Assembly (NCBI GenBank): GCA_902826615.1
Contig: CADEFN010000009.1
Span: forward strand, 1-64,000
Direction of reading: 5' to 3'
Source of the DNA: an uncultured Gemmatimonadota bacterium
GTDB lineage: Bacteria; Gemmatimonadota; Gemmatimonadetes; Gemmatimonadales; Gemmatimonadaceae
DNA: 64,000 nucleotides
How positions within the stretch are numbered: the stretch's first letter is position 1; each line of letters opens with the position of its first letter. Of the stretch, positions 24,594 through 36,375 are shown piece by piece. The notes below the pieces were generated by a model. That model did not search any database. It worked only from the letters and a program-made list of their open reading frames with translations, and was not told the DNA's origin. Both the position numbers and the translations under genes were made by a program.

Positions 24594-27284
24594 TCAGATC
24601 TCGCGAATTGCCTGGAGTGGCGCACGGAGTGTGGCCCGCCAGGCCGGCACCAGTCCCGCGACAACCGCCACCAGCCCTACCATGAGCGGCGCTCCTACAA
24701 ACGTCACGGCATCCAGCCGTGACACCCCAAACAAGAGGGAACCGAGCAATCCCGAACCGGCCAGGGCGCCAGCAACACCGAGAACAAGCCCGGTTGCGAC
24801 CAGCTGGGCGAGACCACGCAGAATCAGGCTGGCCGACGCTGCCCGGCTCGCGCCTAACGCCTGACGAATGCCGATCTCCCTGGTCCGCTGTGCGGCCGTG
24901 TACGAGACCACCCCTTGTACCCCAACGAGCACCAGCAGGCAGGTGACAAACGCAAACCCGGACATCAAGGTCACGGCAAATCGCCGCTGCCCGACGGAGG
25001 TGCCCAGGGTCGTGGAGAAGGGCTCCAGGCCGAAGGTGGCGAGCTGCGGATCTGTGGCGGCCATGAGGCGTCGAACGTCAACGACCACCGCTTCAGCCGG
25101 ACGGCGGCTTCGCACGAGGAGTACCCCTCCCGATCCGGGCGCTTGATGGAAGGGGATGTATGTCGCGGGAGGAGCCGGTGCCGTGAGTCCATGAATGCGC
25201 TCGTCCTTCACCACGCCCACGATGCGCCGGCTCATGCCCCAGAACGAGATCTGCTGACCGATGGGATCGACCCCGGCAAAAAAACGACGGGCGGTGGTGG
25301 CGTTGATCAACGCCACCGGTGCGGCATTGCCGACGTCGCCGGCGCCGAAGTTGCGCCCGTGCTGCAGCTGGAGTCCCATCGTCTCCGGGTACCCCGGCGT
25401 GATGAGCCGGACGGAGATCTCCGGCCAGTCGGCCGATTCAGCCTCACGTCCGACTACACGCCAGGAATTGGTGAATCCCTCGTCCAGTGGATGGGCTCCC
25501 GCGATCGCCGCCGCCTCCACGCCGGGCACTGCGCGCGCGGCCGCGAGCACGCGATCGGTGAATTGCGTGATCTCCGTGAAGTTGGGGAACTTCGAGAAGT
25601 CACGCGGATAGCGACTCGCTGGCAACTCGTACTCGGCCTTGACCACGCCGCTTGAGGAGAAGCCTGGATCCACTTTCAGCACGGCCACAAACGAACGGAT
25701 GACCAGCCCCGAACAGACCGCGAGGGTGACGCAAAGCGCGAGCTGCGCGATCACCAGCACGTTCCGGAGTCGCTGCCCGCCTTTGGTCATTGTCGTGGTG
25801 CCCGCCTCGCCCTTGAGCACCGCCATCGGGTCGTTGCGGAAGGCCGCGAGTGCCGGCAGGAGACTGAACACAGCGCCCACGACCCCCGCCATCGCCACGG
25901 CCACCGCGATACTTCGCGGATCGAGCGCTACGCCGGAGAGCCGCGGCACACTGGCGGGCCCGGTCAGCCTGATCCCGAAGAGGATAAGCGCCGCGAGCCC
26001 CAGGCCGGCGACCGCGCCCCCGGTCACGAGGAGCGCCGACTCCGCGGCGAACTGACGTCCGAGGCGTGTCCCCGAGGCGCCTAACGCGCCGCGCAGCGCT
26101 ACTTCTCGTGCTCGCGATGTCCCGTGGACCAGAAGGAGGTTGGCCACGTTGACCGTGGCAACGAGTGCCAGCAGTGCGGCTGCCGCGGCGAGCAGGGCAA
26201 AGAGGGGACGCACCGGGCCGAGTACCACCTCTTCGAACGATTCCACAAAGGCACCACGCGCGGTGTTCTCCGGATACTGCGCCTCGAGGTCACGCATGAT
26301 CGTGGTGACTTCGGCCTGCGCTGCAGAAACACTGCTGCCCCGCGCGATGCGACCGATCATGAGCAGTGGGTGGGTCTCACGGGGCAAGTCTGCCACCGTG
26401 GCCTGCAGTGGGAGCCACAGGTCGACGCGACCGGTTGCCTCATAGGCGGAGTGATAGGCTGCCCGGTCATGGAGCTGGTCGAGGCCGAAGTCGGAGTCGT
26501 CAGGCACGACGCCGACGATCTCTGTGGCGACGTCGCTGAGCGAAACGACCTGCCCGACAATGTCATCGCGTGCGTTGAAGCGGGCGCGCCAGAGCGACTC
26601 GCTGATGAGAGCGACCCGGGCGCCACCGGGCGACGTCTCCGCGGCACTGAAGAGACGGCCGCGAGACGGCCGAGCATCAAACAACTGAAACCAGCCACCG
26701 GTAACTGCCAGCCCCGAGATCCGTGCGGGCTCGGTGTTCGGGGCAGAAAGAGTCTCGATCGTGCCGATGACCCCTTCGATGGCCGCCAGTGTGCGGGCGC
26801 GCGACCTCAGGTCGAGATAGTCGGGAAGAGAGCCCGGCTCGCGCGTGGTGCCACTTCGGCTGTCCGTTTCCCAGACTGCGACGAGGCTGGCCGCATCGGT
26901 GTAGGGTGCCGGCCGAAGCAACACACGATCTGCTGCCGAGAAGACGGCGGTGGCCGTGCCAATGGCGAGTGCGAGGGTGGCCGTTATGGTAAGGGTGAAC
27001 ACCGGCCGTGACCGGAGTTGCCGAATGCCATGCCGCAGATCGCGCAGGAGGTCGTCGACCACGGCCGCGCCGCGTTGCTCTCGTGCACGCTCCCGGATGT
27101 CGCCGGCCGCGCCGAACTCCAGATGGGCGCGACGTCGGGCCTCGTCAGGACCGAGTCCCTGTGCTTCATGCCGCGCGGTGAGCATATCCAGATGGAAACG
27201 CACCTCGTCCTGATGTGCCGTGTCCTCATGCGCCCCCCGCACCAGGGCGCGGACGCGGTGGACCACGTCCGACCAGGCGCTCAT
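24594..27284 (-). CDS. ADOP-type ABC transporter permease (MacB-like)
   Basis: The 896-residue product is a duplicated FtsX/MacB permease. An N-terminal cytoplasmic segment of about 70 residues (EVRFHLDMLTARHEAQGL) is typical of the Acidobacteria/Gemmatimonadota ADOP group. MacB_PCD domains lie at about 100-340 and 520-740, and FtsX helix sets at about 370-500 and 770-890. No ATPase gene is adjacent, which is usual for these orphan permeases. Its start overlaps the upstream PadR gene by 4 nt (ATGA), so PadR probably controls it. The frame is open to 27443, but the ATG at 27284 fits the overlap and family. Confidence 0.9.
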   Translation of the reverse strand: MSAWSDVVHRVRALVRGAHEDTAHQDEVRFHLDMLTARHEAQGLGPDEARRRAHLEFGAAGDIRERAREQRGAAVVDDLLRDLRHGIRQLRSRPVFTLTITATLALAIGTATAVFSAADRVLLRPAPYTDAASLVAVWETDSRSGTTREPGSLPDYLDLRSRARTLAAIEGVIGTIETLSAPNTEPARISGLAVTGGWFQLFDARPSRGRLFSAAETSPGGARVALISESLWRARFNARDDIVGQVVSLSDVATEIVGVVPDDSDFGLDQLHDRAAYHSAYEATGRVDLWLPLQATVADLPRETHPLLMIGRIARGSSVSAAQAEVTTIMRDLEAQYPENTARGAFVESFEEVVLGPVRPLFALLAAAAALLALVATVNVANLLLVHGTSRAREVALRGALGASGTRLGRQFAAESALLVTGGAVAGLGLAALILFGIRLTGPASVPRLSGVALDPRSIAVAVAMAGVVGAVFSLLPALAAFRNDPMAVLKGEAGTTTMTKGGQRLRNVLVIAQLALCVTLAVCSGLVIRSFVAVLKVDPGFSSSGVVKAEYELPASRYPRDFSKFPNFTEITQFTDRVLAAARAVPGVEAAAIAGAHPLDEGFTNSWRVVGREAESADWPEISVRLITPGYPETMGLQLQHGRNFGAGDVGNAAPVALINATTARRFFAGVDPIGQQISFWGMSRRIVGVVKDERIHGLTAPAPPATYIPFHQAPGSGGVLLVRSRRPAEAVVVDVRRLMAATDPQLATFGLEPFSTTLGTSVGQRRFAVTLMSGFAFVTCLLVLVGVQGVVSYTAAQRTREIGIRQALGASRAASASLILRGLAQLVATGLVLGVAGALAGSGLLGSLLFGVSRLDAVTFVGAPLMVGLVAVVAGLVPAWRATLRAPLQAIREI

Positions 27285-27622
27285 GGGAGAGCTCCGGCCC
27301 AGTCCACGATCGCATTGACCGCGGTGGCCGCGCGTTTCCACGCGGCGCGCTCCACCGTGAGCCGTTTGCGTCCCGCCGGGGTGAGCTCGTAGAAACGCGC
27401 GCGGCGGTTGTTGTCCGTGATTTGCCACTGGGAGCGAATCCATCCTTTGCGGCGCAGACGCTCCAGGGCAGGGTACAGCGACCCCTGATTGAGGAGGAGC
27501 ACATTGCCACTCATCTGCTCCATGCGCAGCGTGATCCCCCAGCCATGCATGGGTTCCAGCGAAATCACCTTCAGCAGCAGGAGGTCAAGTGTGCCCTGCA
27601 GGAGATCACTGCGCTCGCTCAT
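27281..27622 (-). CDS. PadR-family transcriptional regulator
   Basis: The 113-residue product is a winged helix of the PadR type: LLQGTLDLLLLKVI, MHGWGITLRM, GSLYPALERLRRKGWI and the wing ITDNNRRARFYELTPAGRKRL. PadR proteins are usually repressors that sense small molecules. The gene overlaps the permease start by 4 nt and is preceded by a 51-bp palindromic region, the likely operator. The open frame reaches 27739, but MSERSDLLQG is the standard PadR start. Confidence 0.92.
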   Translation of the reverse strand: MSERSDLLQGTLDLLLLKVISLEPMHGWGITLRMEQMSGNVLLLNQGSLYPALERLRRKGWIRSQWQITDNNRRARFYELTPAGRKRLTVERAAWKRAATAVNAIVDWAGALP

Positions 27623-27631
27623 GGTCTGTTC

Positions 27632-27682
27632 CTCTTGATGATCGAGAGTAGTGTGGTTCCGACTACTCTCGATTGTCAAGAG
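27632..27682. promoter_or_regulatory. Long palindrome upstream of padR-like gene, probable operator
   Basis: Perfect 12-nt arms ATCGAGAGTAGT (27641-27652) and ACTACTCTCGAT (27662-27673) flank a 9-nt spacer. A further CTCTTGA (27632-27638) pairs with TCAAGAG (27676-27682), leaving a 2-nt mismatch between the inner and outer arms. The palindrome ends 9 nt upstream of the ATG. A consensus TTGACA reads on the minus strand at 27680-27675 inside the right arm. PadR autoregulation is expected from the family. Confidence 0.65.
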
Positions 27683-27857
27683 AAAGAACGTGCCCGCTCG
27701 CGCGTTGTCGACGGGCACGAAATGCCCGACAGACGTCATCCGAATACGGTCGTCAGGCGCCTGGTCCCTTCACGCGGCGCTCGCGGAGGCCCTGACCTTG
27801 CAGTAGACTGGCCGTTGCCAGGTGTGGGTTGGGGACCTTCAACGGGAGAGAGTAACC

Positions 27858-28643
27858 ATGGCGGCGCAACGGGCACGAAAGCAGAAGGCAGTGGTGGACG
27901 TGGACGACGACAACCCCTTTGTTCTCCGTAGCAGGGCGGACGAGCCAGGCGACCCGGACGTCCACGTGTACGGGAGAAAGGTGGTGTGCGCGACCGACAC
28001 CCGCGGACAGCCACGAGCCAGGGGACGTTCTCCCCTGGAAATAGTAGTGGACGCCACCGAGGGCTTTATTCCACTCTGGTCGCGGAACACGACACTCCGC
28101 TGGCGATTCAACAAGCGATCGATGCGCATCTTCCAGAGCCCCGCCGCAGCCGCGGGCATCGAACGGCTGATGGCGCAGGCACTGACGAAGTGGGGCGACG
28201 CCGTCCCCGTGAAGTTTGCCAAACGCGATGATGCCTGGGACTTCGAGGTCGTCATGAGACGCACGGACGACTGCGATAGCAGCGGGTGTGTCCTCGCCAT
28301 GGCATTTTTCCCCGACGCCGGGCGACACCAGCTCGTGCTCTACCCCAAGCTTTTCGAGCAGAGCCGCAAGGAACAGATCGATACCCTCGTCCACGAGTTT
28401 GGCCATGTGTTCGGGCTTCGCCACTTCTTTGCCGTGGTCGAGGAACGGGAGTGGGCCAGCGAGATCTTCGGCAAACATCGCGCCTTCTCGATCATGAACT
28501 ATGGCAGCAAGAGTGTGCTCACTGGGGACGATCGCGCCGACCTCAAGCGCCTGTACAAGCTGGCCTGGTCGGGTGATCTGACCAACATCAACGGCACCCC
28601 GATCCGTTTCGTCAAGCCCTTTCACATCGCTGCCAACGCCTAG
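27858..28643 (+). CDS. Metzincin-type zinc metalloprotease without signal peptide
   Basis: The 261-residue product contains HEFGHVFGLRH (His179, Glu180, His183, His189), the HExxHxxGxxH zinc motif, and the Met-turn SIMNYG (Met203), together diagnostic for metzincins such as matrixins (M10). The preceding region has a proper edge (RWRFN, LVLYPKLF). The N-terminus is basic and hydrophilic with no signal peptide or lipobox, unusual for this class. It may act inside the cell or leave by another route. GGGAGAG precedes the ATG. It is separated by about 215 nt from the divergent PadR gene. Confidence 0.8.
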   Translation: MAAQRARKQKAVVDVDDDNPFVLRSRADEPGDPDVHVYGRKVVCATDTRGQPRARGRSPLEIVVDATEGFIPLWSRNTTLRWRFNKRSMRIFQSPAAAAGIERLMAQALTKWGDAVPVKFAKRDDAWDFEVVMRRTDDCDSSGCVLAMAFFPDAGRHQLVLYPKLFEQSRKEQIDTLVHEFGHVFGLRHFFAVVEEREWASEIFGKHRAFSIMNYGSKSVLTGDDRADLKRLYKLAWSGDLTNINGTPIRFVKPFHIAANA

Positions 28644-28787: not shown

Positions 28788-29903
28788 ATGGGAATTGGGG
28801 GAGACATCCACAGGGCATCAACGGCGCGGTTGCGTACGCGTCTCATCTGTGCGGTCGGCGTCGCAGGGGCATGCTCGACGCAAGACACCACCGCGCCTGT
28901 AGCGGACAGGAATCTCCAGGTCGCGAGAGACGTTCGTACCACCGCCATTACGTACACCACGCTTGTTCTCACCGGGTACAACTATCCCAAGGGGGGATCG
29001 GCGCGGGCTATCAATGCCAGCGGGGTAATCACCGGATGGCACCGCGTGGCCACTCATCTCGGGTCACCGAAGAAGCGGGCCTTTCGCTATGCCAACCTGG
29101 CCCTGACCTCGATTCCTGCGGTCAGCGGTTATGTCGAGTGCGAAGGCACCGGTGTCAGCACCAGCGGCACCATCGTGGGTTCCTGCAAGAATGGTGGATT
29201 CAATGTCGGCTTCTCGTGGACACAGGCTGGTGGGGTGGTCAAGCTGACATCACAGGTGCAAGCGGCCACCTGGGCTCATGCGATCAGTCCAGCCGGTACT
29301 GTCGTCGGAGCGTTTGTGGCGCTCGACAACAGGATACACGCGGCAAAATGGACCGGCACGTCGTCTGTTGTCGATCTGCACCCCGCTGGCGCTGACTCCA
29401 GTCGTGCCGTTGCCGTGAACGACGCAGGCGACGTTGCGATCAACGCCTGGTACGCTGGGGTCATGAGGGCGCGCCGCATCATCGGCGGGTCGGTGTTCGG
29501 GCCAATTGCCCTGGCCCCGGCCATTGCGGGCGGGCACACAATCGCCGGAGGGATAAACGCTGCCGGGTTGATTTCAGGGAATGCGGGAGTCGGCGGTCCC
29601 AACTCCATCGGCGCAATCTGGAGTGCCATTGCCCCACCCATCTGGTTCGCGGCGTCCAACCCGACGGTCGGATGGGGAATCAGCAACAAGCAGCGCGTGG
29701 TTGGCCAGCAGGGCAACTATCCCGGCTATGGCGCCGCGTTCACTCGCGATGCGCAAGGAAACATCTCGTTCCTCAGTGCTCCGGGCGCTGAGACATCCGC
29801 CTTTGCAGTGAACACATGTGGTTGGATTGTGGGTGAAGCAAAAGCCCCAGCGTCGGCGTTTCCTGAGGCCGTGTTCTGGTTTCCAAGCAGCTGCGACCCC
29901 TGA
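28788..29903 (+). CDS. HAF-repeat lipoprotein
   Basis: The 371-residue product has a signal peptide with a lipobox-like VAGAC (Cys29), then short beta repeats typical of extracellular HAF-repeat proteins: SARAINASGVITGW, AHAISPAGTVVGAF, SRAVAVNDAGDVAI, GGINAAGLISGN and FAVNTCGWIVGEA. These repeats are predicted to build a beta-propeller or solenoid outside the cell. No function is known. I chose ATG 28788 because GGGGGGAT lies just upstream; the frame is open to 28695. A long hairpin overlaps its stop codon. Confidence 0.75.
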   Translation: MGIGGDIHRASTARLRTRLICAVGVAGACSTQDTTAPVADRNLQVARDVRTTAITYTTLVLTGYNYPKGGSARAINASGVITGWHRVATHLGSPKKRAFRYANLALTSIPAVSGYVECEGTGVSTSGTIVGSCKNGGFNVGFSWTQAGGVVKLTSQVQAATWAHAISPAGTVVGAFVALDNRIHAAKWTGTSSVVDLHPAGADSSRAVAVNDAGDVAINAWYAGVMRARRIIGGSVFGPIALAPAIAGGHTIAGGINAAGLISGNAGVGGPNSIGAIWSAIAPPIWFAASNPTVGWGISNKQRVVGQQGNYPGYGAAFTRDAQGNISFLSAPGAETSAFAVNTCGWIVGEAKAPASAFPEAVFWFPSSCDP

Positions 29904-29955
29904 CCGAGTTGTTCCCGGGACGCACCAGATTGTGTGCGCCCGGGACCTCGGTCAG
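29900..29955 (+). terminator. Long stem-loop overlapping the stop codon of the HAF gene
   Basis: CTGACCGAG (29900-29908) pairs with CTCGGTCAG (29947-29955). CCCGGG (29914-29919) pairs with CCCGGG (29939-29944), and CGCAC (29921-29925) pairs with GTGCG (29934-29938). The TGA stop is inside the left arm. No U-tract follows, so termination may depend on Rho, or the stem may protect the 3' end. Confidence 0.6.
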
Positions 29956-30005
29956 AAGGTCGAACACCGCTTGGCTTAGCGCCACGGCGATAGCACTTTT
30001 GAGGC

Positions 30006-30458
30006 GTGAAGCGAACCGTTCTCCTCTACGGATTGGTCGGCGGGGTCCTGATCGCCGGGCTCAAGTTCATCGAGTACCGCTTTCTGGTCATCGAGCATTC
30101 GTGGGAACTGTACGGAGGCCTGGTGGCCCTGTTGTTCTCCGTGCTCGGAATCTGGCTCGGACTCAGGCTGACCCGGCCCGCCACACAGGTTGTCATCAAG
30201 GAGGTCCACGTGCCCGTCGCTGCTGCGACGCCGGTAGTGGTCGATCCGGCCCGTCGCGAGGCCCTCGGAATCACCGCCCGTGAGCTGGAAATTCTCGAGG
30301 CCATGGCAGCCGGTCTGAGCAACCGCGAGATCGCCGAGAAGCTCTTCGTCAGCGAGAATACGGTCAAAACGCACTCGAGCCGGCTCTTCGACAAACTGAA
30401 CGCCAAGCGGCGTACCCAGGCGGTGCAGCACGCCAAACAGGCCGGACTCATCGCCTGA
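30006..30458 (+). CDS. Membrane-anchored LuxR-type HTH regulator
   Basis: The 150-residue product has two predicted membrane helices (about 5-25 and 33-54) and then a LuxR/GerE helix-turn-helix at about 88-148: LGITARELEILEAMAAGLSNREIAEKL, cut here as LTxRExEIL followed by NREIAEKLFVSENTVKTH. There is no receiver domain, so signal input must come through the membrane part or a partner. The next gene, a DUF4199 membrane protein, may be that partner or the target. The GTG start is supported by the first helix. A pair of overlapping hairpins separates the two genes. Confidence 0.8.
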   Translation: MKRTVLLYGLVGGVLIAGLKFIEYRFLVIEHSWELYGGLVALLFSVLGIWLGLRLTRPATQVVIKEVHVPVAAATPVVVDPARREALGITARELEILEAMAAGLSNREIAEKLFVSENTVKTHSSRLFDKLNAKRRTQAVQHAKQAGLIA

Positions 30459-30460
30459 AG

Positions 30461-30515
30461 GGGTGATTTTGGGGCGTTTCGGCGAAAATCACCCATTTTG
30501 GCGACGCAAAATGGG
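30461..30515 (+). promoter_or_regulatory. Overlapping hairpins between LuxR-HTH and DUF4199 genes
   Basis: GGGTGATTTT (30461-30470) pairs perfectly with AAAATCACCC (30485-30494). CCCATTTT (30492-30499) pairs perfectly with AAAATGGG (30508-30515). The two stems share the CCC at 30492-30494, so at full length they exclude each other. They could form an attenuator, or the first could be a terminator followed by ATTTT (30495-30499). Confidence 0.5.
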
Positions 30516-30566
30516 CCCGGGGCCCTCCATTCTGCGCCGACTTCCACTGCGCAGAGGCGCACCACC

Positions 30567-31124
30567 ATGAGAAAAACAGTCCTGACCTTTGGCCTCATTG
30601 CCGGCGCGATCCTGTCGGCGATGCTGTTGCTGACCATCCCGCTCCTCGACCAGATCAGCGTCGAAGTCGGAATGGTGATCGGATACACGACGATGGTTCT
30701 GTCGTTTCTGCTCATCTATTTCGGAGTGCGAACGTACCGCGATGGACCACTCAGCGGTTCGATCTCCTTTGGCCGGGCGCTTGGGACCGGTGCACTCATT
30801 GTTGTGGTTGCGAGTGTCTGTTACACGGCGACCTGGGAGGTCATCTACTTCAAACTTGTGCCGCAGTATCGCGAGCGCATGATGTCCGAGATGATCAAGC
30901 AGTCCGAGGCCAAGGGCGGGACGCCAGCGCAAATCGAGGCACGTCTCGCGGAGTCACGCCAATGGGCCGAGCGCTATCAGAATCCCCTCGTGAACTCGGC
31001 GATCACGTTCATGGAGCCGCTGCCGGTGGGCCTGGTGGTTGCGCTGGTCACGGCCGGCATCCTTCGCCGGAAAAAGCAGGGTGCCGACACGCAGGCCTTT
31101 GCTCGCACGGCCGCCGCATCCTGA
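30567..31124 (+). CDS. DUF4199-family membrane protein
   Basis: The 185-residue product has four predicted membrane helices (about 5-26, 35-53, 70-92, 148-168) and the DUF4199 pattern: an early GLIAGAILSAMLL, YTTMVLSFLLIYFGVRTYRD, and a charged loop of about 50 residues before the last helix. The family has no established function. It often lies near regulators, as here, where a membrane-bound LuxR-type gene sits 108 nt upstream. The start is ATG 30567. Confidence 0.8.
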   Translation: MRKTVLTFGLIAGAILSAMLLLTIPLLDQISVEVGMVIGYTTMVLSFLLIYFGVRTYRDGPLSGSISFGRALGTGALIVVVASVCYTATWEVIYFKLVPQYRERMMSEMIKQSEAKGGTPAQIEARLAESRQWAERYQNPLVNSAITFMEPLPVGLVVALVTAGILRRKKQGADTQAFARTAAAS

Positions 31125-31151: not shown

Positions 31152-31523
31152 ATGCAGCTTGGTGCATTTTCAATCAGTCTGGCGGTCAAGGATCTTGCGG
31201 CCTCCCGCGCCTTCTACGAGAAGTTTGGTTTTCGGGAGATGGGCGGCGACGCGTCGAAGGGGTGGCTAATTCTCAAGAACGGTGATCATGTCATCGGCCT
31301 TTTTCAGGGGATGTTCGAGAAGAACACCCTGACCTTCAATCCCGGCTGGGACAGTAACGCGTCCAAAGTCGAGCACTTCACGGAAGTTCGTGAGCTGCAG
31401 AAGCAGCTCAAGGCGCAGGGGGTGTCGCTGGTGATGGAGGCGGACGAGTCGACGACGGGCCCGGCGTTTTTTGTGGCAAACGATCCGGACGGCAACCCGG
31501 TGCTGGTGGATCAGCATGTGTAG
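31152..31523 (+). CDS. VOC (glyoxalase-like) superfamily protein
   Basis: The 123-residue product is a single vicinal-oxygen-chelate unit with both paired beta-alpha-beta modules. It begins FSISLAVKDLAASRAFYEKFGF and ends with DPDGNPVLVDQH. Members include glyoxalase I, dioxygenases and antibiotic-binding proteins. The metal residues of glyoxalase I are not clearly conserved, so the substrate is open. It lies 27 nt after the DUF4199 gene, possibly in the same transcript. Confidence 0.87.
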   Translation: MQLGAFSISLAVKDLAASRAFYEKFGFREMGGDASKGWLILKNGDHVIGLFQGMFEKNTLTFNPGWDSNASKVEHFTEVRELQKQLKAQGVSLVMEADESTTGPAFFVANDPDGNPVLVDQHV

Positions 31524-32376: not shown

Positions 32377-35300
32377 CTACTTGAGTACAGGCACCCTCGA
32401 CCAGTCGAGGTCAGTGAGGACGCCTTCATAGACTCGCATCGCCCCGACCGCGATGCGCGTGTTGTAGCTGTTGCCAGCCAGGCTGATCCGAGCACGACCT
32501 TTCGGCGGAGCGGTGCCGTTGATGATGCCAAGGGGTTTACCGTCGACGGCGACACCGCATCTCCCGTCAGGAAACAGTTGCAGTCGCAGCCGCCAGGGAC
32601 GCCCGCTCGCAATGTCGTCAACGCGGATTTTCGCGGCCGCTCTGACCGCAAAGGCACTAATGAATCCACGCATGTCGCGCACGCGGCCCTCTTCGGGATA
32701 CCCCATGCCGCACAGTCCCTCTCCTTCCGTGAACCCGGGGACCGGGTTCTTTCCGGCAGCCTCGTGTAATCGCGTGGTGTCGACACCTGTCACCAGGGCA
32801 AGGCCGATGCCCTGCCACTGGGGCATGGTGATCGGTGTCATCAAGACGAAATCCATAGCAACCCCACCTTCGGTACTGACCTCACCTTTGGCGACGGCGC
32901 CTGACTGGAATGAGCCATCCCCATTTGTGAGGAACACAGGTTGCGCGGTTCCGGCCGACGCCACGGTGGGGACAGGATAGCCAAAGGGCATCCAGCTCCC
33001 GAGGCCATTCCGCCACTCCTCCTCAAACACCAGGCGCGCCGGCCGGTCGGTGACCGGAAGTGTGACGGTGTCACTCGCGGAGCGACCCGAGGTCACGGTG
33101 ACCTGCACGGAAGGTGTAGTCCCCGATACGGTGAGAATGCCGCGCAGGGAATCAATGACGCCGGCCCGCGAGTCGACGATGGACCAGCGCAGGCTCCCCG
33201 ATTCCCTGAGCGCCCGGCCGCGTTCGTCACGCATGATGGCCCGAAGCTGCACCGGAACGTTGGCCGGCACCACGGCAGGGACAACCATGCGGGCAGTGGC
33301 CGCCCGCATGGGACTGGTCGACGTGATCCAGAAAATCGCGAGGAGCTTGCGCGATGGACCGGGCCGCATGCTGAGGGGACGTGCCAGGTTCGGGGCAGAC
33401 ACCGGCACGACGGCGGGGACCGTCGTGCCGTCATTCTGCAGCGCGCAGGTGCAGAGGACCCAATCGGCGTCGGGGCTCAGCCAGGCGCCACGCACGTTAC
33501 CGTCGATGAGCGGTTGATCCTCGCCGGTTGACCACTGCAATACGGTCAACTGTCCCGATGGGCTCGAGGCCAGTGCCAAGCGGTCGGAGTCCAGCCAGCC
33601 CGCGGTCGTGAAGGAGGCGTCGGGTGTCCTCATGGCGCGGCACTCCAGCAGCGACGTATCAACCTCGATGACGCAGATCTCGCTCGGCTGGGCGCCCCAC
33701 TGAAACCTGGTGAAGGCCAGTCTGCTGCCGTCGGGGCTCCAGTACGGGGCAACGTCAGAGGTGGGGCCAGCGGTCAGGCGGCGTGGCATCGTGTCGTTGA
33801 TTCCGGCGACGGCGATGTCGTATCGCATGAGCGAATCCCACCGTGCTGTGGCAAACGCGACCAGGCGACCGTCAGGGGAGAGCGTAGGCGACACGTCATC
33901 CCGCTCTGCCGGCAGGAAGGGACGACCCGGGCCTTCACCCTCGTAGAGGAAGAGGTCGATGGTGCCCAACCCGGCAACAGCCTGCGCGGTGACGAGCCGT
34001 CGGGTGGTCGGCGAATAGTTGGCCCCGAACCCGTTGGGTGAAGTGAGGGTGATCGGGGGGGCCGCCCAGGGTCGCGGCAGGAGGGTGTCCTGGGGGGACC
34101 ATCCGGATTGCCGCACATCATACGCGTCAAACGTCACATGGCCGGCCGAATCGATGTAGGCCACGGCGAGCACGGCATCCGGGGTGGGGACTGGCGCCTC
34201 TCGCACCAGGGTGCCTAACGCCAATCCCGCGGCGACGGTCACGGCGCCCAGGCCAGCCACGATCCGTCGCGTGGTGGATACCACGCCAAAACGCCACGAG
34301 AGTGGCGCCGACCGTCCGAGGGCGATCACCTCCGCCGGTCGCGCGGCCGCGCCTAACAAGTCGCCCGCGATCGTGGTGACCGACCGACGGTCGCCCAGGG
34401 CAAAGCGGTGCTGGCAGAACGCCCGAAAGAGGTCGGTCTGTGCACCGAAATCATCGCCATGACGCAGCAGCTGCGCGGCCCTCCGGGCCCGGCCTTCGTC
34501 GAACGGCTCCGTCGACCCGAGGGCGCGCCCGAGTTGCACCGAGGCTTTGACCGTCGCATCGCGCGGCGCGACGCGCAACGCTTCGTCCGCGATTTCATCG
34601 TGGGCGGTGCGCCAGCCGGCGCCGTCGCGGAGCACCAGCCCTCGTGCCTCGAGGGCCGCGAGTCGCGCCATGGACTCTTCGGGGCTCCGCTCGGATGCCG
34701 CGACCAGCACCTCCTGATCAAGCGTACCTCCCGCGACTGCGAGAAGGGTCAGAAGCCAGAGTTCGGTTCGGTCGAGGTCGGCCAGCCTCGCGCGAAGAAC
34801 ATCGGCCTGCTGCAGCTCGGCTGTCAGGGCTTCGGGGCGTGAGGTCGCCCACAGCCCATCAACTCGTCGAAGCAGTTGCTGGGCCTCGAGGTGCTGCAAC
34901 ATCTCGAGGGCCAGGAGGGGAGAACCGCGCGAGGCCTTCCACAGATCGCCCGCAAAGGTTGTGGCCCAGCCCTCGCCGGGCAACGCGGCGATGCTGAGCA
35001 CCAGTTCCTCGATATGCCCCGCCGTGAGGGGATCGAGGGCGAGATGCGTAGTGAGGGCGGACGAGACGAGCTGGTGTTTGCGGGCTTCGGTGCGCCCCGC
35101 GGTCACGACCAGCACCCGTGTGTCGGTCAGCCCTTCAATGGCGGCGGCGATCAGGGCTGCGGAGGCGTCGTCCCACCAGTGCAGGTCATCGATGAGAATG
35201 GCCACGGGATGCTCGAAGGCAACGGTGGCCATGAGCTCGCGAATCGCGAGGGTGCGTGCTCGCAGCAGGTCGATGCGGGTGACGCGTTTGGCTGGGCGAT

Positions 35301-36375
35301 CAAACCAGGTGGAGAGGGAGGGATTGAGGTCGACGAGTGTCGCAGCGGTTTCGGGGGCGATGGCCTGCCGCCCGGGCAGCGAGGCCAGGGCCGCGGCCAG
35401 GTCCCCCGCCACGGTGTACTCGATGTCGCGCGCGCCTAACGATCCGCCGAGGGTGATGACCTTGCCACGCATGGCACGAATACGGGCCGCCACGTCGCGA
35501 AGGAGGCGGGTCTTGCCGTACCCGGCGCGGGCGGTGATATGGAGACGGAGTGCCTTGCCGCTGCGGGTGCTCTCCCAGGCCTGCATGCAGGCGGAAAAGG
35601 CCTCCTCGCGCCCCACCAGCGACGGCGCAAGCTGGTCCACGCCATCGGTTGGCGTAGTCCGTGCGCTGCCGCTGGTTGATTGGCTCTGTACCGAGCGGAG
35701 CACGGCACGCGTTGATGGTTCCAGGGCCATCTCTTCGCGCTCGGCCAGCTGCTGTAGCGCTTCCGACTCCGAACGCGCTGCGAGCATGTCGTTGGCAGAG
35801 AGGCAGGCTTCGATGAGCAGGCGCCATCCACTCTCGTTGTAGAGGTCCTGATCCCTCAGCCGCTTGGCCACGATGACGGCGTCGCGTGGCCGGCCCGCGG
35901 TCAGGTGGTTCGCAATGACGGCTTCGGCCGAATGCCGGAAGACCTCGAGCAGCCGCCGACGTTCAAGGGCGGCCCACTCTTCAAAGGCCGAGCTGCCGGG
36001 GGCCGCGAAGTTGGGGATGAAGGGACCGGTGTAGAGCTCAACAACGCGGTGATGGTCGCCGGCTCTGGAAGCGGCGAGGAGTTCATCGCGGTCGACGGTG
36101 ACCGCATCGGAGAGGCGGAGGTTGTCGCCCTCGGCGATAATGAGATCCTGCCCCGTCTTCTTCTTGAGGTACCAGAGGGTTTGGCGGAGGGCGTGTTTGG
36201 CGGCGTCTGGTTCGAGGTCAGCCCACAGGAGGGAGGCGACATGACCGCGGGTACTCTCTCTGCCCGGGGCCGCCGACAGATACACCAGCAGCGCCGACGG
36301 CTTGCCAACACCGGCGACGGTCTGACCATCGGCCGTGCGGAGACCTGCGAGGACCGAAAGCGAACCCAGGTGCAT
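32377..36375 (-). CDS. Giant SARP/STAND regulator with transmembrane segment, TolB-like propeller and C-terminal LamG-like domain
   Basis: The 1332-residue product has these parts in order. Residues 1-93 are a winged-helix effector of the SARP/OmpR type, and 95-230 a BTAD helical domain. About 252-480 is a STAND-type ATPase, with Walker A ARAGYGKT (282-289) and Walker B VAILIDD (391-397). A helical region to about 690 is followed by one membrane helix (704-724). A TolB/PD40 beta-propeller lies at about 745-1000, with SPDGR at 833 and SPDGS at 880. A BIG2/Ig-like domain lies at 1030-1110, and a lectin/LamG-like beta-sandwich at 1112-1320. AfsR-like proteins share the first half. The outside half suggests a receptor that passes a signal through the membrane to its own DNA-binding domain, which is inference. 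Confidence 0.85.
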   Translation of the reverse strand: MHLGSLSVLAGLRTADGQTVAGVGKPSALLVYLSAAPGRESTRGHVASLLWADLEPDAAKHALRQTLWYLKKKTGQDLIIAEGDNLRLSDAVTVDRDELLAASRAGDHHRVVELYTGPFIPNFAAPGSSAFEEWAALERRRLLEVFRHSAEAVIANHLTAGRPRDAVIVAKRLRDQDLYNESGWRLLIEACLSANDMLAARSESEALQQLAEREEMALEPSTRAVLRSVQSQSTSGSARTTPTDGVDQLAPSLVGREEAFSACMQAWESTRSGKALRLHITARAGYGKTRLLRDVAARIRAMRGKVITLGGSLGARDIEYTVAGDLAAALASLPGRQAIAPETAATLVDLNPSLSTWFDRPAKRVTRIDLLRARTLAIRELMATVAFEHPVAILIDDLHWWDDASAALIAAAIEGLTDTRVLVVTAGRTEARKHQLVSSALTTHLALDPLTAGHIEELVLSIAALPGEGWATTFAGDLWKASRGSPLLALEMLQHLEAQQLLRRVDGLWATSRPEALTAELQQADVLRARLADLDRTELWLLTLLAVAGGTLDQEVLVAASERSPEESMARLAALEARGLVLRDGAGWRTAHDEIADEALRVAPRDATVKASVQLGRALGSTEPFDEGRARRAAQLLRHGDDFGAQTDLFRAFCQHRFALGDRRSVTTIAGDLLGAAARPAEVIALGRSAPLSWRFGVVSTTRRIVAGLGAVTVAAGLALGTLVREAPVPTPDAVLAVAYIDSAGHVTFDAYDVRQSGWSPQDTLLPRPWAAPPITLTSPNGFGANYSPTTRRLVTAQAVAGLGTIDLFLYEGEGPGRPFLPAERDDVSPTLSPDGRLVAFATARWDSLMRYDIAVAGINDTMPRRLTAGPTSDVAPYWSPDGSRLAFTRFQWGAQPSEICVIEVDTSLLECRAMRTPDASFTTAGWLDSDRLALASSPSGQLTVLQWSTGEDQPLIDGNVRGAWLSPDADWVLCTCALQNDGTTVPAVVPVSAPNLARPLSMRPGPSRKLLAIFWITSTSPMRAATARMVVPAVVPANVPVQLRAIMRDERGRALRESGSLRWSIVDSRAGVIDSLRGILTVSGTTPSVQVTVTSGRSASDTVTLPVTDRPARLVFEEEWRNGLGSWMPFGYPVPTVASAGTAQPVFLTNGDGSFQSGAVAKGEVSTEGGVAMDFVLMTPITMPQWQGIGLALVTGVDTTRLHEAAGKNPVPGFTEGEGLCGMGYPEEGRVRDMRGFISAFAVRAAAKIRVDDIASGRPWRLRLQLFPDGRCGVAVDGKPLGIINGTAPPKGRARISLAGNSYNTRIAVGAMRVYEGVLTDLDWSRVPVLK

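What the first reader, a model, noticed from the sequence alone, without database searches (positions are those of the whole stretch)
30006..31124. Membrane-tethered LuxR-type regulator paired with a DUF4199 protein across two overlapping hairpins
A 150-residue protein with two membrane helices and a LuxR-type helix-turn-helix but no receiver domain is followed by a four-helix DUF4199 protein. The gap holds two perfect stems, 30461-30470/30485-30494 and 30492-30499/30508-30515. They share three bases and so cannot both form fully. This looks like a small membrane signalling module with RNA-level control between regulator and partner. DUF4199 has no known function.
Basis: partly seen in the sequence, partly recalled or inferred. 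Interest (0 to 1): 0.58.

Follow-up and report, generated by a model that had tools for sequence, protein, structure and literature searches.

The report
Membrane-anchored LuxR regulator, operator and DUF4199
A small gene switch anchored in the cell membrane and the membrane protein made from the next gene form a conserved pair in several bacterial phyla, and the 'RNA hairpins' between them are most likely the DNA landing site through which the switch turns on its partner, which makes a protein family of unknown function testable.

Summary
The gene pair is real and conserved; the hairpin reading is not. A 2-helix membrane protein with a LuxR/GerE HTH (30006-30458) precedes a DUF4199 gene (30567-31124). 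In 148 genomes of the family, 48 carry the LuxR and 54 the DUF4199; 47 carry both, adjacent on one strand in 45 of 47. Relatives occur in Gemmatimonadota, Acidobacteriota, Pseudomonadota and Eisenbacteria. The first stem is the inner half of a conserved operator: two palindromes TCAYCC-gWWc-GGRTGA with centres 38 bp apart, followed at fixed distance by a TANNNT -10-like element, so the proximal palindrome sits near -43, a class-II activator position. It travels with DUF4199 when LuxR lies elsewhere, is nearly unique in each genome, and is missing in 5 of 7 family genomes with DUF4199 but no detected LuxR. Pairing shows only a small, phylogeny-sized excess, and the second stem is peculiar to this genome. 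Best reading: a one-component transmembrane regulator with essentially one target, DUF4199. A shared N-terminal membrane helix suggests that the two proteins touch. No binding or expression was measured.

The parts
30006..30458 (+). Membrane-anchored LuxR/GerE-type regulator, 150 aa: helices 2-26 and 32-56, short outside loop (consensus EYRFLVIEHSxEIYGG around it), linker, HTH 90-143
   Evidence: conserved in 48 of 148 family genomes
30451..30466 (.). Distal operator palindrome (TCGCCTGAAGGGGTGA), overlaps the LuxR stop codon 30456-30458
   Evidence: position-frequency table of 82 loci, positions -9 to 6; inverted repeat I1
30489..30504 (.). Proximal operator palindrome (TCACCCATTTTGGCGA), centre 38 bp from the distal one, near -43 of the inferred promoter
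30461..30494 (.).
   Evidence: spacing 13-15 in 96 of 103 anchored loci
30528..30533 (+). -10-like element of the DUF4199 promoter (CATTCT here; TANNNT in 44 of 90 loci at this phase)
   Evidence: weak in the window itself, inferred from relatives
30567..31124 (+). DUF4199 membrane protein, 185 aa, proposed partner and target
31152..31523 (+). Glyoxalase/VOC-family gene 27 nt after DUF4199, probably in the same transcript
   Evidence: Pfam PF00903 E 1.1e-9; similar VOC genes beside DUF4199 in some relatives
30492..30515 (.).

Best explanation
A one-component transmembrane transcription regulator with a dedicated target. The LuxR-type protein sits in the membrane by a two-helix hairpin with its HTH in the cytoplasm. 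Two dimers bind the two palindromes between the genes, in fixed helical phase; the proximal dimer, centred about 43 bp before the transcription start in place of a good -35 box, recruits RNA polymerase and switches on DUF4199 (and, in this genome, probably the glyoxalase-like gene behind it). DUF4199 lies in the same membrane, shares the first membrane helix with the regulator, and most likely feeds back on it as inhibitor or co-sensor. Shown by comparison of sequences: the pair, operator architecture, phase, near-uniqueness, link to DUF4199, link to presence of LuxR. Inferred: binding, activation, membrane topology, contact and feedback, the signal (membrane state or a lipophilic compound).
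For: Co-occurrence: 47 genomes with both, 1 LuxR only (contig edge), 7 DUF4199 only, 93 neither, Fisher p 8e-30 (phylogeny not corrected). Operator: 95 of 115 distinct loci score >=14 against 14 of 575 shuffles. Near-unique: strict pattern found once each in 21 of 148 genomes, 20 of the 21 sites upstream of DUF4199; proximal-palindrome pattern at 30 places, 26 upstream of DUF4199; only one site above 16 bits in the 64-kb window, its own reverse strand aside. Stays with DUF4199 when LuxR is away: L014, L017, L107, L111 and, on another contig, G095 and G114. Operator without adjacent LuxR: 5 of 7 such genomes carry a full-length LuxR elsewhere. Operator in 46 of 47 LuxR+ and 2 of 7 LuxR- DUF4199 genomes, p 4e-5. 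Where a gene precedes DUF4199 in the transcript (L030/L134, L120, L108, L113) the site lies before that gene. Spacing 13-15 in 96 of 103, with outliers at 3, 24 and 25, about one turn away. TANNNT starting at position 67 or 68 in 42 of 90 loci, about 1 expected. Shared helix: hhalign E 5e-7, 0 of 240 column shuffles as good.
Against: No binding or expression data. Two genomes (G056, 93% complete; G149, draft) have the operator but no LuxR was detected; G031 has both genes but no operator and a LuxR match in two pieces; L089, L122 and L157 have weak or partial distal sites. A soluble NarL-family regulator elsewhere could be the binder. LuxR-operator coevolution of residues was uninformative (membrane columns scored as high as HTH columns). 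Inner-stem pairing is slightly above re-paired controls (0.841 against 0.825, z 3.3), which a hairpin would also give. The -10-like element in the window is poor (CATTCT).
Confidence: 0.75

Rival explanations
1. RNA switch: two mutually exclusive hairpins in the intergenic RNA control DUF4199.
For: Two perfect overlapping stems in this genome; slight excess of pairing in the inner stem over re-paired controls.
Against: Stem 2 is not in any other of 82 loci (at most 6 of 8 pairs); 68 of 82 loci have a mismatch in stem 1; the commonest non-pairs (C-C, T-C, A-C, C-A) keep each half-site consensus but break the pair; the outer half-sites are conserved although outside the stem; fold z -1.41; no Rfam match in the window; fixed helical phase and a -10-like element downstream of the stem, so the stem probably precedes the start of the DUF4199 transcript.
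Confidence: 0.06
2. The operator is bound by another regulator (for example a soluble NarL-family response regulator); the adjacent LuxR is a passenger or acts elsewhere.
For: NarL-type regulators are common and bind comparable palindromes (recalled); two genomes have the operator without a detected LuxR.
Against: Operator and LuxR go together (46 of 47 against 2 of 7); 5 of 7 unlinked cases carry LuxR elsewhere in the genome; the site is nearly unique per genome, which suits a dedicated local regulator.
Confidence: 0.13
3. Same pair and operator, but the LuxR represses DUF4199.
For: The proximal site would cover the -35 region.
Against: No good promoter hexamer pair was found in 29850-30620 by the consensus scan, and a site centre near -43 with a second site upstream is the usual place for activators of the LuxR kind (recalled).
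Confidence: 0.15

Closest known systems
LytTR regulatory systems (LRS: HdrRM, BrsRM of Streptococcus mutans; PMC6193735, passages read)
   Same: Two-gene module of DNA-binding regulator then polytopic membrane protein; repeated binding sites just upstream of a promoter.
   Different: LytTR domain and direct repeats there, GerE/LuxR HTH and palindromes here; regulator soluble there (Bacteroides LRS-like ones have membrane segments), membrane-anchored here; there the operator lies before the regulator's operon (positive autoregulation), here between regulator and partner.
Transmembrane transcription regulators / co-component systems (CadC, ToxRS, TcpPH; PMC10269533, passages read)
   Same: DNA-binding domain joined to membrane helices; partner membrane protein often encoded next door.
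   Different: The well-known ones use N-terminal OmpR-type wHTH and periplasmic domains (recalled); here a C-terminal LuxR HTH after a two-helix hairpin with a short loop. The words LuxR and GerE do not occur in that paper's main text.
HigX of Caulobacter and BcrR (PMC13384398, passages read)
   Same: Membrane helices in one chain with the DNA-binding domain, no apparent outside domain; proposed 'fused LRS'.
   Different: HigX is LytTR with four helices; no DUF4199 partner (the term DUF has 0 occurrences in the main text).
NarL/LuxR (GerE) family response regulators VraR, ChrA, DevR, NarL
   Same: HTH homologous (PDB sequence hits down to 4e-18); palindromic sites (recalled).
   Different: No receiver domain; membrane hairpin instead.

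Membership tests
LuxR/GerE HTH regulators | GerE HTH domain above curated cut-off | tested here: met
   PF00196 74.6 bits, cut-off 23.5
NarL-type response regulators | Receiver domain before the HTH | tested here: not met
   No receiver match; residues 1-58 are a predicted membrane hairpin
Transmembrane transcription regulators (one-component) | DNA-binding domain and membrane helix in one chain | tested here: met
   Prediction from sequence and model only
Transmembrane transcription regulators (one-component) | Protein is in the membrane and binds DNA from there | not testable with these tools
   needs fractionation and footprinting
DUF4199 (PF13858) | Match above gathering score | tested here: met
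   102.7 bits against 32.3
LytTR regulatory systems | LytTR DNA-binding domain | tested here: not met
   GerE instead
LytTR regulatory systems | Direct repeats before the regulator's operon promoter (autoregulation) | tested here: not met
   Palindromes between the genes; no 16-of-16 palindrome in up to 250 nt upstream of LuxR except five hits that are artefacts of loci cut at the contig start; one locus (L092) scores 14 of 16
LytTR regulatory systems | Membrane partner inhibits the regulator | not testable with these tools
   needs deletion of DUF4199
Structured RNA of Rfam | Match at gathering score | tested here: not met
   0 matches in the window

The most novel reading that the evidence does not exclude
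The regulator's membrane anchor is a part of DUF4199 (or the reverse): both proteins begin with the same G9xxxG13 helix, and the two form a mixed membrane complex through it. The module is then a self-contained homeostat in which the regulator measures its own free partner: when membrane conditions draw DUF4199 away, free regulator dimers bind the phased double operator and make more DUF4199. One circuit with essentially one target per genome, kept across at least four phyla.
Probability: 0.3. Interest if true: 0.72.

Novelty: new variant of a known kind. Interest (0 to 1): 0.52.

Why it matters
DUF4199 has no known function; the library searched holds one paper that names it, in a table, and none that names it with LuxR. 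A conserved regulator, operator and target across phyla gives a direct handle: which condition induces DUF4199 and what happens without it. It also adds a LuxR-type membrane regulator whose operator drives only its partner, a wiring different from the autoregulated LytTR systems.

Tried and rejected
RNA hairpin: rejected by pair counts, phase and position. Intrinsic terminator: the only terminator-like site in 29850-30620 is on the - strand and within chance (1 found, 0.7 expected). LuxR-operator coevolution by mutual information: top columns include membrane residues, so phylogeny dominates; uninformative. DUF4199 fold: no Foldseek PDB match at E<=0.001; VIA-align gives Z 9-10 to MacB/FtsX-type four-helix domains (HrtB 7w7a, LolC 7mdx, LucB 8fed, FtsX 8tzj; rmsd 3.3-4.2, 130-137 residues), a level the tool calls common for helical bundles; not used. 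Sequence profile against PDB gave designed helical proteins and weak SbmA only. Other conserved neighbours: apart from LuxR, DUF4199 and shadow frames over them, only a protein kinase-like cluster (11 of 80 loci, both strands) and the VOC gene (8 of 80) recur in at least 6 loci. Pfam does not link the LuxR hairpin to DUF4199; the link rests on profile-profile comparison with shuffle controls. G007 holds the strict pattern without the pair; taken as chance.

Rows dropped: one search counted 115 distinct loci after removing duplicates and L104 (10 nt upstream); loci without a DUF4199 match (L007, L021, L077, L078) were not counted; one search used the 82 with spacing 14 and score >=14; one search used 90 with spacing 14 or 15; one search anchored 103 of 115. 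A2 leaves out 6 of 52 listed LuxR rows as near-duplicates; A3 leaves out 9 rows of the failed (L096, which has a stop in frame, and L107, L111, L119, L132, L134, L146, L150, L154 as a precaution) and shortens 3 (L097, L127, L157).

Full report
OBSERVATION. The LuxR ORF (GTG 30006 to 30458) carries a GerE domain and no receiver; AlphaFold2 on an alignment of 47 sequences gives two N-terminal helices (2-26, 32-56), a low-confidence linker and a confident HTH. The DUF4199 gene very probably starts at ATG 30567, where the aligned relatives start, rather than at TTG 30498. The RNA of the gap is not unusually stable (z -1.41).

THE PAIR IS CONSERVED. In 148 genomes of the same family, a relative of the LuxR was found in 48 (E<=1e-15) and of the DUF4199 in 54 (E<=1e-10). 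47 have both; in 45 of the 47 the two lie on one contig and strand within about 1.3 kb, in 2 (G095, G114) on different contigs. 93 have neither. The one with LuxR only (G101) ends at a contig edge. An independent scan of named genomes found 231 DUF4199 relatives and kept 80, from records titled Gemmatimonadetes, Acidobacteria, Proteobacteria and Candidatus Eisenbacteria among others; 71 of the 80 have the LuxR upstream on the same strand. In 199 genomes drawn from the phylum of G152 (an Acidobacteriaceae record), 14 have the LuxR at E<=1e-25, so it is patchy there. The window's own name is not given; by its relatives it is likely a Gemmatimonadaceae (inference).

THE GAP HOLDS AN OPERATOR. Upstream of DUF4199, 95 of 115 distinct loci contain GGGTGATTTT-N12..17-AAAATCACCC with at least 14 of 20 matches, against 14 of 575 shuffled sequences. 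In the window they are 30451-30466 and 30489-30504; the first overlaps the LuxR stop codon. Anchoring on the proximal palindrome, 96 of 103 loci have spacing 13-15; the others are 3, 18, 23, 24, 25 (one each) and two without a distal half-site. 3, 24 and 25 differ from 14 by about one turn of DNA; 18 and 23 are weak matches; shuffled flanks give about 9.6 chance matches per set over all spacings, so single outliers may be chance. TANNNT begins at position 67 or 68 in 42 of 90 loci, about one expected. If that is the -10 box, the proximal palindrome is centred at about -43 and the distal one at about -81. That is a class-II activator layout (recalled). In the window the corresponding hexamer is CATTCT (30528-30533), a poor match.

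IT BELONGS TO DUF4199 AND IS NEARLY UNIQUE. Pattern GGRTGATT-N14..20-AATCAYCC occurs in 21 of 148 genomes, once each (its own reverse complement aside), and 20 of 21 sites are upstream of DUF4199 (reversed-pattern control 0). Pattern AAATCAYNCNNNNGNRTGACG occurs at 30 places in 28 genomes; 26 places are upstream of DUF4199; the other four (in G083, G044, G070, G122) have centres other than AA or TT. A weight matrix finds one site in the 64-kb window (54.8 bits; nothing else above 16 apart from the same site on the other strand). The site stays beside DUF4199 when LuxR is 0.3-2 kb off or on another contig (L014, L017, L107, L111, L118, L040, L065), and lies before an intervening gene when one sits between operator and DUF4199 (L030/L134 and L120, a glyoxalase-type gene; L108 and L113, no Pfam match).

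LINK TO THE LUXR. Of the 54 family genomes with DUF4199, the operator is present in 46 of the 47 with LuxR (by my reading G043 with short spacing, G008 before its VOC gene; missing in G031) and in 2 of the 7 without a detected LuxR; one of these two, G073, has a LuxR fragment at a contig edge (L105). Fisher p 4e-5, without correction for phylogeny. Of seven genomes with an operator but no adjacent LuxR, five carry a full-length LuxR elsewhere (G095, G148, G150, G151, G152); G056 and G149 do not. Less tidy: G153 and G155 have a LuxR elsewhere while their DUF4199 copies (L113, L156) lack a site close by; L113 has one about 0.9 kb upstream, before another gene.

AGAINST AN RNA ROLE. In 82 loci the ten inner pairs are standard in 84.1% of cells against 82.5% when arms are re-paired between loci (z 3.3); 68 of 82 have at least one mismatch; frequent non-pairs (C-C, T-C, A-C, C-A) keep both half-site consensuses. 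The small excess is seen at positions 3/32 and can come from relatedness. The loop shows no pairing above control, and both palindromes pair worse than re-paired controls because their centres are AA or TT. Stem 2 is fully formed in the window alone.

A SHARED HELIX. hhalign of the LuxR hairpin with the first 62 residues of DUF4199 aligns residues 1-24 to 1-24, E 5.4e-7, probability 92%; 0 of 240 column-shuffled controls score as high, and the rest of DUF4199 gives E 0.16. With whole profiles the match spans 1-58 to 1-59, probability 56%, E 1e-4. G9 is invariant in both alignments; G13 is invariant in DUF4199 and nearly so in LuxR. This suggests common origin or a common packing face; it does not show contact.

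MECHANISM. Shown by comparison: pair, operator, phase, near-single target, dependence on presence of LuxR. Inferred: LuxR binds as two dimers from the membrane, activates DUF4199, and DUF4199 feeds back. A glyoxalase-type gene follows DUF4199 in the window, and related VOC genes lie beside it in a minority of relatives (window type in 8 of 80 loci; a second type near DUF4199 in several more).

NOVELTY. It works like LytTR regulatory systems and co-component membrane regulators but is not a member of the former. In the open-access library, DUF4199 with LuxR appears in 0 papers and DUF4199 in 1; other searches gave analogues only. Papers were read as passages, not in full.

Noticed in passing
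31152-31523 and L030/L134, L120, L085, L086, L087, L092, L096, L097, L098, L127: Two kinds of glyoxalase/VOC gene recur beside DUF4199, after it or between the operator and it, hinting at a functional link.
   Followed up: partly
L068, L125, L150: Natural operator variants with spacing 3, 24 and 25 instead of 14, about one DNA turn shorter or longer.
   Followed up: partly
L107:1118-2830 and L111:1080-2792: In two loci an X-Pro dipeptidyl-peptidase (S15) gene sits between LuxR and the operator-DUF4199 unit.
   Followed up: no
24594-27443 (-) and 27281-27739 (-): MacB/FtsX-type permease next to a PadR regulator gene (Pfam).
   Followed up: no
32377-36375 (-): 1332-aa protein with an AAA_16 ATPase domain and a PD40 propeller repeat match; looks like an unusual regulator fusion.
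   Followed up: no
27822-28643 (+): Protein with a matrixin-type (M10) peptidase match, E 9.5e-8.
   Followed up: no
29900-29955: Inverted repeat CTGACCGAG/CTCGGTCAG after the gene upstream of LuxR.
   Followed up: no
G133, G152: G133 holds two LuxR-DUF4199 pairs, the LuxR of one cut by a contig edge; G152 has DUF4199 loci L136 and L142 but one detected LuxR.
   Followed up: no
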